Assembly: GCF_027942865.1 (NCBI RefSeq)
Contig: NC_134525.1
Location: 309,501-373,500, forward strand
Direction: 5' to 3'
DNA: 64,000 nucleotides
Source of the DNA: Odontesthes bonariensis
Lineage: Eukaryota > Chordata > Actinopteri > Atheriniformes > Atherinopsidae
The notes below the pieces were generated by a model that had not been told where the DNA came from, searched no databases, and worked only from the letters and a program-made list of their open reading frames with translations. Positions 44,601-53,600 of this stretch are shown in pieces. Each line of letters opens with the position of its first letter. Position 1 is the stretch's first letter. The position numbers and the translations under genes were made by a program.

Positions 44601-47600
44601 TTTATTGATTTATTGGTTCCTATTTCATGGAACTGTAGTAGTTTATAGTAGTTTATTAGGTACGTTTAGGTTGAGGGTTTGAAGCCGTGGTTTTAGTGAA
44701 GCCTGGACACTGACTTGGTGTAAAAGGCCTTAAGACTCATGAGAGGTTCGGTCTCCGGATCTGCTACAGATGACTTTTCCCACAGTTAGAGGGTTCAGAG
44801 ATGAAGATTAAAGCAGAACTTTACCTGCTGAGTCTCTAACTAAGTTAGTTAACTAACTCAGTTAATGAACTGATCTCTGACCGAAGCTTTCTGATGTTTC
44901 CGTGCAGCTTCAGAGGAGTCAGAGCGCGACATCTACATGCGCTTCATGAAGTGTCACAAGTGCTACGACATCATCCCAACCAGCTCCAAACTGGTGGTGT
45001 TCGACACCACGCTGCAGGTGAGTCCTAACATCTGTGATCAGGTGAGTCCTGGCACCTGTGACCAGGCGAGGCCTCGCACCTGTGACCAGGCGAGTCCTCG
45101 CACCTGTGACCAGGTGAGGCCTCGCACCTGTGACCAGGCGAGTCCCTCACACCTGTGATCAGGCGAGTCCCTCACACCTGTGATCAGGCGAGGCCTCGCA
45201 CCTGTGACCAGGCGAGTCCCTCACACCTGTGATCAGGCGAGTCCTGGCACCTGTGACCAGGCGAGGCCTCGCACCTGTGACCAGGCGAGTCCTCGCACCT
45301 GTGATCAGGTGAGTCCTGACACCTGTGATCAGGTGAGTCCTGGCACCTGTGACCAGGTGAGTCTTCGCACCTGTGATCAGGTGAGTCCTCGCACCTGTGA
45401 CCAGGCGAGGCCTCGCACCTGTGACCAGGCGAGTCCTCGCACCTGTGATCAGGTGAGTCCTGACACCTGTGATCAGGTGAGTCCTGGCACCTGTGACCAG
45501 GTGAGTCTTCGCACCTGTGATCAGGTGAGTCTTCGCACCTGTGACCAGGCGAGGCCTCGCACCTGTGACCAGGCGAGTCCTGGCACCTGTGACCAGGTGA
45601 GGCCTCGCACCTGTGACCAGGCGAGGCCTCGCACCTGTGACCAGGTGAATCCTCGCACCTGTGATCAGGTGAGTCTTGGCACCTGTGATCAGGTGAGGCC
45701 TCGCACCTGTGACCAGGCGAGGCCTCGCACCTGTGATCAGGCGAGTCCTGGCACCTGTGACCAGGTGAGGCCTCGCACCTGTGACCAGGCGAGGCCTCGC
45801 ACCTGTGACCAGGCGAGGCCTCGCACCTGTGACCAGGCGAGTCCTCGCACCTGTGACCAGGCGAGGCCTCGCACCTGTGACCAGGCGAGTCCTCGCACCT
45901 GTGATCAGGTGAGTCCTGACACCTGTGATCAGGTGAGTCCTGACACCTGTGATCAGGTGAGTCCTGGCACCTGTGATCAGGTGAGGCCTCGCACCTGTGA
46001 CCAGGCAAGTCCCTCACACCTGTGATCAGGCGAGTCCTGGCACCTGTGACCAGGTGAGGCCTCGCACCTGTGACCAGGCGAGGCCTCGCACCTGTGACCA
46101 GGTGAATCCCCGCACCTGTGATCAGGTTAGTCCTGGCACCTGTGATCAGGTGAGGCCTCGCACCTGTGACCAGGTGAGTCCTGACACCTGTGATCAGGTG
46201 AGTCCTGACACCTGTGATCAGGTGAGTCCTGGCACCTGTGATCAGGTGAGGCCTCGCACCTGTGACCAGGCAAGTCCCTCACACCTGTGATCAGGCGAGT
46301 CCTGGCACCTGTGACCAGGCGAGTCCTCGCACCTGTGACCAGGTGAGTCTTCGCACCTGTGACCAGGCGAGTCCTCGCACCTGTGACCAGGCGAGTCCTC
46401 GCACCTGTGACCAGGTGAGGCCTCGCACCTGTGACCAGGCGAGTCCCTCACACCTGTGATCAGGCGAGTCCTGGCACCTGTGACCAGGTGAGGCCTCGCA
46501 CCTGTGACCAGGCGAGTCCCTCACACCTGTGATCAGGCGAGTCCTGGCACCTGTGACCAGGTAAGGCCTCGCACCTGTGACCAGGCGAGGCCTCGCACCT
46601 GTGACCAGGCGAGGCCTCGCACCTGTGACCAGGCGAGGCCTCGCACCTGTGACCAGGCGAGTCCTCGCACCTGTGACCAGGCGAGGCCTCGCACCTGTGA
46701 CCAGGCGAGGCCTCGCACCTGTGACCAGGCGAGTCCTCGCACCTGTGACCAGGCGAGTCCTCGCACCTGTGATCAGGTGAGTCCTGACACCTGTGATCAG
46801 GTGAGTCCTGGCACCTGTGACCAGGCGAGGCCTCGCACCTGTGACCAGGTGAATCCTCGCACCTGTGATCAGGTGAGTCTTGGCACCTGTGATCAGGTGA
46901 GGCCTCGCACCTGTGACCAGGCGAGGCCTCGCACCTGTGACCAGGTGAGGCCTCGCACCTGTGACCAGGCGAGTCTTCGCACCTGTGACCAGGCGAGTCC
47001 TCGCACCTGTGACCAGGCGAGTCCTCGCACCTGTGACCAGGTGAGGCCTCGCAACTGTGACCAGGCGAGTCCCTCACACCTGTGATCAGGCGAGTCCTGG
47101 CACCTGTGACCAGGTGAGGCCTCGCACCTGTGACCAGGCGAGTCCCTCACACCTGTGATCAGGCGAGTCCTGGCACCTGTGACCAGGTAAGGCCTCGCAC
47201 CTGTGACCAGGCGAGGCCTCGCACCTGTGACCAGGCGAGGCCTCGCACCTGTGACCAGGCGAGTCCTCGCACCTGTGACCAGGCGAGGCCTCGCACCTGT
47301 GACCAGGCGAGGCCTCGCACCTGTGACCAGGCGAGGCCTCGCACCTGTGACCAGGCGAGGCCTCGCACCTGTGATCAGGTGAGTCCCTCGCATCTGTGAT
47401 CAGGTGAGTCCTCGCACCTGTGACCAGGCGAGTCCTCGCACCTGTGATCAGGTGAGTCCTGACACCTGTGATCAGGTGAGTCCTGACACCTGTGATCAGG
47501 TGAGTCCTGGCACCTGTGATCAGGTGAGGCCTCGCACCTGTGACCAGGCAAGTCCCTCACACCTGTGATCAGGCGAGTCCTGGCACCTGTGACCAGGTGA

Positions 47601-50600: not shown

Positions 50601-53600
50601 TGTGATCAGGTGAGTCCTGGCACCTGTGACCAGGCGAGTCCCTCGCACCTGTGATCAGGCGAGTCCTGGCACCTGTGATCAGGCGAGTCCTGGCACCTGT
50701 GACCAGGCGAGGCCTCGCACCTGTGACCAGGTGAGTCTTCGCACCTGTGATCAGGTGAGTCCTCGCACCTGTGATCAGGTGAGTCCCTCGCATCTGTGAT
50801 CAGGTGAGTCCTCGCACCTGTGACCAGGCGAGGCCTCGCACCTGTGACCAGGTGAGTCCTCGCACCTGTGACCAGGTGAGTCCTCGCACCTGTGATCAGG
50901 TGAGTCCTCCCACCTGTGATCAGGTGAGTCCCTCGCATCTGTGATCAGGTGAGTCCTCGGACCTGTGACCAGGTGAGTTCTCCCACCTGTGATCAGGTGA
51001 GTCCTCCCACCTGTGACCAGGTCAGTCCTCCCACCTGTGATCAGGTGAGTCCTCCCACCTGTGACCAGGTGAGTCCTCCCACCTGTGATCAGGTGAGTCC
51101 TCGCACCTGTGATCAGGTGAGTCCTATCACCTGTGATCAGGTGAGTCCTCACACCTGTGATCAGGTGAGTCCTCGCACCTGTGATCAGGTGAGTCCTATC
51201 ACCTGTGATCAGGTGAGTCCTCACACTTGTGATCAGGTGAGTCCTCGCACCTGTGATCAGGTGACCTGTGACCAGGTGAGTCCTCGGACCTGTGATCAGG
51301 TGACCTGTGATCAGGTGACCTGTGACCAGGTGAGTCCTCGGACCTGTGATCAGGTGACCTGTGATCAGGTGAGTCCTCGCACCTGTGATCAGGTGACCTG
51401 TGATCAGGTGACCTGTGATCAGGTGACCTGTGATCAGGTGAGTCCTCGCACCTGTGATCAGGTGACCTGTGATCAGGTGACCTGTGATCAGGTGAGTCCT
51501 CGCACCTGTGATCAGGTGGGTCCTCACACCTGTTTATCTGACTGTTCATTCTGTTTCAGGTGAAGAAGGCGTTCTTTGCTCTGGTGGCGAATGGAGTGCG
51601 AGCTGCTCCGCTGTGGGAGAGCAAGAAGCAAAGCTTTGTGGGTAAGATCCCCTCGCTAACCTTATCAGTTTTTACAACCTGAGGTCATGTGATCAGACCC
51701 TGAGGTCATAGATCAGGGCCTGAGGTCATGTGATCAGGGCCTGAGGTCATGTGATCAGAGCCTGAGGTCATGTGATCAGAGCCTGAGGTCATGTGATCAG
51801 GACCTGAGGTCATAGATCAGAGCCTGAGGTCATGTGATCAGACCCTGAGGTCATGTGATCAGGACCTGAGGTCATGTGATCAGGACCTGAGGTCATGTGA
51901 TCAGAGCCTGAGGTCATGTGATCAGGACCTGAGGTCATGTGATCAGGGCCTGAGGTCATAGATCAGAGCCTGAGGTCATAGATCAGAGCCTGAGGTCATG
52001 TGATCAGAGCCTGAGGTCATAGATCAGAGCCTGAGGTCATAGATCAGAGCCTGAGGTCATAGATCAGAGCCTGAGGTCATAGATCAGAGCCTGAGGTCAT
52101 GTGATCAGATCCAGAGGTCATGTGATCAGGACCTGAGGTCATGTGATCAGGGCCTGAGGTCATGTGATCAGGGCCTGAGGTCATGTGATCAGGACCTGAG
52201 GTCATGTGATCAGGACCTGAGGTCATGTGATCAGGGCCTGAGGTCATGTGATCAGGGCCTGAGGTCATGTGATCAGGACCTGAGGTCATGTGATCAGGAC
52301 CTGAGGTCATGTGATCAGGGCCTGAGGTCATAGATCAGAGCCTGAGGTCATAGATCAGAGCCTGAGGTCATAGATCAGAGCCTGAGGTCATGTGATCAGG
52401 GCCCGAGGTCATGTGATCAGATCCTGAGGTCATAGACATGAGCCTGAGGTCATGTGATCAGAGCCTGAGGTCATGTGATCAGAGCCTGAGGTCATGTGAT
52501 CTGTGGACTAAAAACTCTTTTTATGCTTTAAAACTCTGTTTTTTATGTTTTGTTGGAAGCTCTTTGTGATATTTGTCCTTGAGAGCTGCTGAACTGATAA
52601 AATGTTACTGATTTACTGAGTGTTTCGTTTGTCTGATGACACAAAGGCCTGAATGACCTTGTGTTTTAATGGATCAGACATTAGGCTCCGCCCCTCCACA
52701 CACCTGAACACTCACGTTTTTATCTTTCAGGAATGTTGACCATCACAGACTTCATCAACATCCTGACCAGATACTACAAGTCGCCCATGGTAACGCACAC
52801 ACACACGTTACGGCTTATTTAAACATGAAACCAGTTCTGTTTGAGTTCAGGTGAGTGTAGACGGGCGTCTCTGAGCCGTCACATGACCTCAGGTGTGGTC
52901 AGTTTGAGTGACAGGTGTGTGTCCAACAGGTGCAGATCTATGAGCTGGAGGAGCACAAGATCGAGACGTGGAGAGGTAGGAGCACACTGAGCAGAGATCA
53001 GCTGCAGCATGTTGTATGTTGGTAATCACACACCTGTCCGTGTTGGCAGAGCTGTACCTGCAGGAGACCTTCAAACCTCTGGTGCACATCTCACCTGACG
53101 CCAGGTACCCTCACTCTGCACTGAAAAAAATACTCCTCCAAAAATAAGTTAAAAAAACAACAAATACAAGATGTTTTTGCTTGAAATAAATCAAATTTAT
53201 TCATAAAGCACATTTCATGTCCAAAACAGTTCAAAGTGCTTCACATAAAATAAAAGGATTGCAGCAGGGAGTGTAAGAAGCATTAAAATACATAAAATAA
53301 TATAAAGAGAAACAAATAAGATCATTTAAATGAATTTAAAAACAAGCAACAGTCTAGATATCGTGCAGATTTCATGCATAGACACATGAGAACAGAAATG
53401 TTTTTAACCTGGAAAAATGTCTCCATTTGGTGAAAGTTTAATCTATAAGCAAAGAAATCTGCCAATGGAACTAGTGAAAATCGGCTTGTCCAGATTTCTT
53501 GAAATAAGATGTAATATTTGAGACTTTTGAGATAAAAGTGATCTTGAAATTAGCTTAAAAACCTCTTCAAATGTTTTGAGTCATATGATATGTGACTCAA

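What the first reader, a model, noticed from the sequence alone, without database searches (positions are those of the whole stretch)
45018..51535. Intronic array built from the splice donor itself: hundreds of decoy 5' splice sites
Seen: the 24-bp unit begins at the first intron base, and unit ends read CAG|GTGAG (same as the true donor) or CAG|GCGAG. The unit is a multiple of three. From the true donor the reading frame stays open for six units (VSPNICDQ, VSPGTCDQ, ARPRTCDQ and so on) until a stop at 45156-45158. Use of the next donors would therefore add 8-residue blocks inside CBS1 without shifting frame. Inference: the expansion was seeded at the exon-intron border and copied a functional splice signal along the whole intron.
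Basis: partly seen in the sequence, partly recalled or inferred. Interest (0 to 1): 0.85.

Follow-up and report, generated by a model that had tools for sequence, protein, structure and literature searches.

The report
Fish intron of splice-donor repeats
In a silverside fish, an intron of an energy-sensing gene consists almost wholly of copies of its own start signal; this looks like a repeat that spread by copying errors, a much longer relative of a case known in a human gene, and a good natural test of how cells choose the right splice site.

Summary
The array is real. Intron 45018-51559 of the AMPK gamma-2 gene (the window's 701-residue C-terminal part is identical to an Odontesthes bonariensis protein) is a minisatellite of 274 units starting exactly at the donor: 237 of 24 bp, 27 of 25, 9 of 15, one cut short. 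All 273 later unit starts are donor-like, 153 with GT and 120 with GC; 89 have the true donor's nine letters. Only the last 26 intron bases are not repeat. Correction: five, not six, complete in-frame blocks precede the stop at 45156-45158. Splicing at decoys is not shown: both O. bonariensis protein models seen join the exons at 45017, and none of the 203 homologues listed (two capped lists) holds the unit's peptide. Best reading: an ordinary intronic minisatellite seeded at the donor, in a window 61% covered by 37 such arrays; the first donor is chiefly used, with at most minor +8-residue forms. The kind is known: the human IFI6 (6-16) minisatellite supplies several donors. Self-masking by hairpins was tested and not supported; weakening of the nearest decoys is only a hint. 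Neither relatives' intron DNA nor RNA reads were available.

The parts
44908..45017 (+). AMPK gamma-2 exon (start of CBS domain 1), ends TTLQ, donor CAG|GTGAGT
   Evidence: translation; one search match to AMPK gamma-1 chains; exact match to P0122
45018..51533 (+). minisatellite, 274 units, each beginning with a donor-like sequence; 6516 of the intron's 6542 bases
45018..45041 (+). first unit with the true donor; nearest 24-bp copy elsewhere in the array (50586) differs at one base
45042..45158 (+). in-frame stretch with five decoys (45042 GT, 45066 GC, 45090 GC, 45114 GT, 45138 GC) up to TGA 45156-45158
51261..51491 (+). zone with nine 15-bp short units (GTGACCTGTGAYCAG) among 24-bp units
51534..51559 (+). 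non-repeat 3' end of the intron: CTGAC (from 51538; its A 19 bases before the exon), pyrimidine tract, CAG
51560..51641 (+). next exon, VKKAFFALVANGVRAAPLWESKKQSFV

Best explanation
A neutral intronic minisatellite of a teleost AMPK gamma-2 gene. A 24-bp stretch starting at the donor was duplicated by slippage between the exon-end CAGG and a second CAGG 24 bases on (inferred), then grew and was reshuffled by unequal exchange or conversion (inferred from long identical blocks of units). The donor came along because it lay inside the unit. The spliceosome mostly uses the first donor, which bounds a 110-nt exon (inferred; the two protein models seen agree). Use of any decoy beyond 45158 would bring a stop codon into the mRNA (sequence) and probably its decay (inferred). 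Low-level use of 45042 (+8 residues) is plausible.
For: 274 units in register with the donor. Blocks of 8 to 12 successive units recur exactly 26 to 147 units away, the longest two (12 and 11 units) 75 units apart. The locus is full of such arrays: 37 cover 61% of the window, 6 of them inside coding exons (list merged by hand), so one touching an exon edge is not surprising (37 arrays x 2 ends x 36 exon edges x 7 positions / 64000 = about 0.3 expected, my arithmetic). Both O. bonariensis protein models seen (P0121, P0122) read TTLQ|VKKAFF, i.e. 45017 joined to 51560, and P0122 contains the window's 701 residues exactly. 0 of 203 homologues contain the unit peptide (these are the listed best 120 of 2924 and best 120 of 2416 hits).
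Against: No RNA evidence either way. Protein clusters at 90% identity could hide members with +8 residues (P0122 stands for 6 sequences). 89 decoys equal the true donor letter for letter, so use of some would not be surprising, and human IFI6 does use downstream repeat donors. I found no clear sign that unit ends are poor acceptors: their pyrimidine share (mean 0.61) and T share (mean 0.25, at most 0.35) are below the intron's own acceptor (0.71 and 0.53) but within the range of this gene's 11 acceptors examined (0.41-0.94 and 0.18-0.59).
Confidence: 0.75

Rival explanations
1. The array works as an isoform generator, as in human IFI6: the first few decoys (45042, perhaps 45114) are used and add 8-residue blocks inside CBS domain 1.
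For: 45042 has the same nine letters as the true donor and is in frame; five decoys are in frame before the first stop. IFI6 uses two downstream repeat units as donors (passage in PMC4526556).
Against: The insert would fall between residues 56 and 57 of the matched gamma-1 chain, 14 residues before Arg70, known as a nucleotide-binding residue (recalled). There 200 of 203 homologues have no insert, two more read DTHLQVKK without one, and one predicted fish model has an unrelated 51-residue insert. Both O. bonariensis models seen lack it. Three of the five in-frame decoys are GC.
Confidence: 0.25
2. The array is older than its contact with the donor: it expanded inside the intron, reached or overran the exon edge, and the present donor is itself a repeat copy.
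For: The first unit is an ordinary array member, one base from the unit at 50586. The exon's last 15 bases match the last 15 of some units at 9 positions.
Against: That 9 of 15 match is not significant (reached by 26% of shuffled exon tails). The simplest start is the donor itself.
Confidence: 0.15
3. Decoys are silenced by their own unit: CACCTG-TGAY-CAGGTG folds into a hairpin that hides the GT donor, leaving the true donor open.
For: 126 of 153 GT decoys have a perfect 6-bp stem. With one folding setting the true donor is more accessible than 152 of 153 GT decoys.
Against: Not robust: with three other settings 10, 37 and 11 of 153 GT decoys exceed it. Shuffled units mask as strongly in 7-9% of cases for three unit types and 27% for the first unit's sequence, and a stem of 6 bp or more occurs in 42% of shuffled units. 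Giving the true donor the unit's upstream arm raised rather than lowered its accessibility.
Confidence: 0.05
4. The array is a U1 snRNP platform that protects the long intron from early polyadenylation or holds the transcript on chromatin.
For: 153 GT decoys, 89 of them with the true donor's nine letters; the true donor has the lowest U1 duplex energy of the sites printed, -12.2 kcal/mol (U1 end recalled). No AATAAA or ATTAAA in the array.
Against: Nothing shows U1 binding; a repeat free of those hexamers lacks them in every copy; the array is itself the reason the intron is long; 120 of the 273 decoys are GC.
Confidence: 0.04

Closest known systems
Human IFI6 (G1P3, 6-16) minisatellite that provides multiple splice donors (Turri et al. 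1995; title seen in reference lists; paper not held)
   Same: A minisatellite whose repeat units serve as splice donors (title; passage in PMC4526556). At an exon-intron border with a unit that is a multiple of three (12 bp): recalled
   Different: There two downstream repeat donors are used (passage); here no use is shown. Unit 24 bp and 274 copies here against about 26 copies of 12 bp (recalled); here 120 of 273 decoys are GC and the frame closes after five units
Internal tandem repeats at exon-intron boundaries of recent human paralogues (PMC2812944, abstract and passages)
   Same: Tandem repeats at an exon-intron boundary that can change splicing
   Different: Those are said to form novel introns; here an intron is filled and no new one is shown
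Intron gain by tandem duplication of an AGGT segment (Rogers model; ATP2A1; 24-bp repeats in two fission yeast genes; passages in PMC4974935)
   Same: Tandem units with AG|GT at junctions; in the yeast genes also 24 bp
   Different: There the duplicated segment is exonic; here it is an intron's start and no gained intron is shown
CeRep25B, a 24-base near-palindromic minisatellite of C. elegans, 75% intronic, linked to multiple splicing decisions (PMC4039745, passages)
   Same: 24-base, near-palindromic, intronic
   Different: Found in clusters on chromosomes II and III rather than at one donor; no donor content mentioned in the passages seen

Membership tests
IFI6-type splice-donor minisatellite | Tandem array starts at an exon-intron border and its units hold a donor consensus | tested here: met
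   array starts at 45018; 242 of 274 sites are CAG|GTGAG or CAG|GCGAG
IFI6-type splice-donor minisatellite | Unit length a multiple of three and first units open in frame | tested here: met
   five in-frame decoys before the stop at 45156; but 27 of 274 units are 25 bp
IFI6-type splice-donor minisatellite | More than one repeat donor is used in transcripts | tested here: inconclusive
   Only protein models seen, 2 of 2 use the first donor; RNA reads not available
Intronic minisatellite (ordinary) | Tandem units with variant copies and signs of internal exchange | tested here: met
   exact blocks of 8-12 units recurring 26-147 units apart; 47 distinct sequences among 274 units
Tandem-duplication intron gain | Intron absent in relatives | not testable with these tools
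   The DNA collections offered are prokaryotic, viral, phage, plasmid, E. coli and metagenome ones; none was searched for fish introns
Self-masking donor array | Decoys less accessible than the true donor beyond chance | tested here: not met

The most novel reading that the evidence does not exclude
The array is a working donor-choice device: transcripts use the first few donors in a ratio set by the number and kind (GT or GC) of nearby units, giving AMPK gamma-2 forms with 8-residue steps inside the CBS1 nucleotide-binding domain, varying between fish with the copy number.
Probability: 0.08. Interest if true: 0.75.

Novelty: new member of a known kind. Interest (0 to 1): 0.4.

Why it matters
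If the first donor alone is used in front of 89 copies with the same nine letters within 6.5 kb, this intron is a clean natural test of how exon definition and distance, not donor sequence, fix the 5' splice site. If several are used, it is a vertebrate case of a repeat that tunes a conserved metabolic sensor. It also shows how far a minisatellite can fill an intron while leaving only the donor and the last 26 bases.

Tried and rejected
Self-masking hairpin: first looked strong, then failed shuffles, stem control and other folding settings. Selective weakening of the nearest decoys to GC: 9 of the 11 units 2-12 are GC (hypergeometric P 0.011), but 12 of 262 windows of 11 units reach the same count, this one included, and neighbours are not independent; left as a hint. 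Exon-derived unit (last 15 exon bases plus 9 intron bases): 9 of 15 matches, P 0.26, rejected. Array as recursive-splice or pseudo-exon acceptors (CAG|GTGAG holds both AG and GT): the pyrimidine and T shares of unit ends do not separate them from this gene's true acceptors; neither excluded nor pursued. Search of the window's own genome for other copies of the unit: the same request was sent four times and never answered.

Papers: the listings showed no title or abstract start about this locus or a like fish array; two listings were capped (15 of 179, 10 of 16), and the library holds open-licence PMC papers only. This is no proof of absence in print. Passages of the grunion genome paper PMC13326419 gave nothing on tandem repeats.

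Limits: donor weights, the U1 5' end and splice consensus are recalled, not from a call. In one search three donor positions (exons labelled 4, 8, 11) were off by one or two bases, so its 'real median' and 'real min' figures are not used here; exon edges were corrected. The 5' exon edges come from tblastn and are approximate, and its array list was merged by hand with some small rows left out. Of the protein searches, two of three were used; no structure prediction was run.

Full report
What is there. The finding lies in a teleost AMPK gamma-2 gene. The exons 44908-45017 and 51560-51641 encode the start of CBS domain 1 and match AMPK gamma-1 chains in the PDB. Joining the exons gives 701 residues of protein, contained letter for letter in protein P0122, named as an AMPK gamma-2-like isoform of Odontesthes bonariensis; the window therefore most likely comes from that silverside (order Atheriniformes).

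The array. Intron 45018-51559 is 6542 bases long, of which I count 6516 as repeat. There are 274 units: 237 of 24 bp, 27 of 25 bp, 9 of 15 bp and the cut last one, with 47 distinct sequences. The first begins at the first intron base. At the start of the units, 154 have GT (true donor included) and 120 GC. The nine-letter site CAGGTGAGT of the true donor is present in 89 decoys. GT and GC differ by one transition at a CpG (seen in the sequence). Of the last 34 units, from 50804 on, 33 are GT. The only non-repeat intron sequence is the last 26 bases with CTGAC, its A 19 bases before the exon, a pyrimidine tract and CAG.

Reading frame. From the exon the frame runs through five complete units and stops at TGA 45156-45158 in the sixth. 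The five in-frame decoys are 45042 (GT), 45066 (GC), 45090 (GC), 45114 (GT) and 45138 (GC). All 237 units of 24 bp are open in the frame of their first base; the stop arises where a 25-bp unit shifts the frame. So the open frame needs no selection.

More than chance? CAGGTGAG occurs 135 times in the window against 4.1 expected, but the copies in the array go back to one unit (inferred). Against its neighbours the array stands out: its best sense-strand donor score (12.5) is not reached by any of 200 shuffles of its unit, and the best sense-strand score of the other 36 arrays is 7.4. It is also the only one of 37 arrays with an end within 10 bases of an exon edge; the next are 36, 39, 42 and 42 bases away. 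About 0.3 such contacts are expected by chance from the numbers of arrays and edges (my arithmetic), so the contact itself needs no special cause.

How it arose and works. The exact register, the CAGG shared by exon end and unit end, and identical blocks of 8-12 units at distances of 26 to 147 units fit slippage at the donor followed by unequal exchange. That the donor was the seed is inferred; no relatives' introns could be read. For splicing, the two O. bonariensis models that I could see, P0121 and P0122 (standing for 1 and 6 sequences), join 45017 to 51560. Of 203 homologues collected (the listed best 120 of 2924 and best 120 of 2416 hits), 200 have nothing between LQ and VKK; two (P0041, P0195) read DTHLQVKK, also without an insert; one (P0197) has an unrelated 51-residue insert; none contains the unit peptide. 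This speaks for the first donor as the main one but says little about minor forms. Unit ends are not clearly poor acceptors: their T share (mean 0.25, at most 0.35) is below the intron's own acceptor (0.53) but within the range of the gene's 11 acceptors examined (0.18-0.59).

Ideas that failed. A hairpin CACCTG-TGAY-CAGGTG is perfect in 126 of 153 GT decoys and suggested that decoys mask themselves. Controls did not bear it out: masking as strong arises in 7-9% of shuffled units (27% for the first unit's sequence), a stem of 6 bp or more in 42%, and the lead of the true donor depends on the folding window (1, 10, 11 or 37 of 153 GT decoys exceed it). Enrichment of GC units next to the donor is weak.

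Comparison. The kind is known. In human IFI6 two downstream repeat units serve as splice donors (passage in PMC4526556, which cites Turri et al. [quoted passage not shown] that paper is not held). Tandem repeats at exon-intron boundaries that change splicing are described for human paralogues (PMC2812944, abstract and passages), and 24-bp AGGT tandem units with introns in fission yeast (PMC4974935, passage). This array differs by size, by filling the intron, and by lacking any shown use. High minisatellite content has been reported in another fish, Nothobranchius furzeri (PMC2688266, passages).

Verdict. A real, striking but explicable minisatellite; new member of a known kind. Its worth is as a test case for donor choice; the decisive data (junction reads, relatives' introns) were out of reach here.

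Noticed in passing
window 60222-61245: The last coding exon (60133-61316) carries an acidic repeat tail (19 matches to the TETEI-like core; units around EPGTETEIKPEPDQDQ). P0121 and P0122 of the same species differ here by 14 residues. Many of the 20 other tails printed are also acidic but differ in sequence.
   Followed up: partly
window 24465-25187 and 27397-28119: A coding exon matching the N-terminus of P0121 (MAMKRLSS...) with a 75-bp coding repeat is present twice, 2.9 kb apart; P0121 matches them at 96% and 97%.
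   Followed up: partly
window 20280-20446: 42-bp coding repeat, four copies (FRSASRDSNQQPSS in P0122), in another 5' exon of the same gene.
   Followed up: no
window 1-64000: 37 tandem arrays cover 61% of the window, six of them inside coding exons (list merged by hand).
   Followed up: partly
window 51678-52501: The next intron holds a 21-bp array whose unit shares the nine letters TGTGATCAG with the 24-bp unit; common origin or chance not tested.
   Followed up: no
window 14227-14726: Run of 500 N directly after the array 13319-14226: an assembly gap at the end of a repeat.
   Followed up: no
P0197 (Paramormyrops kingsleyae): A protein with a 51-residue insert at exactly the same LQ|VKK position, unrelated in sequence.
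   Followed up: no
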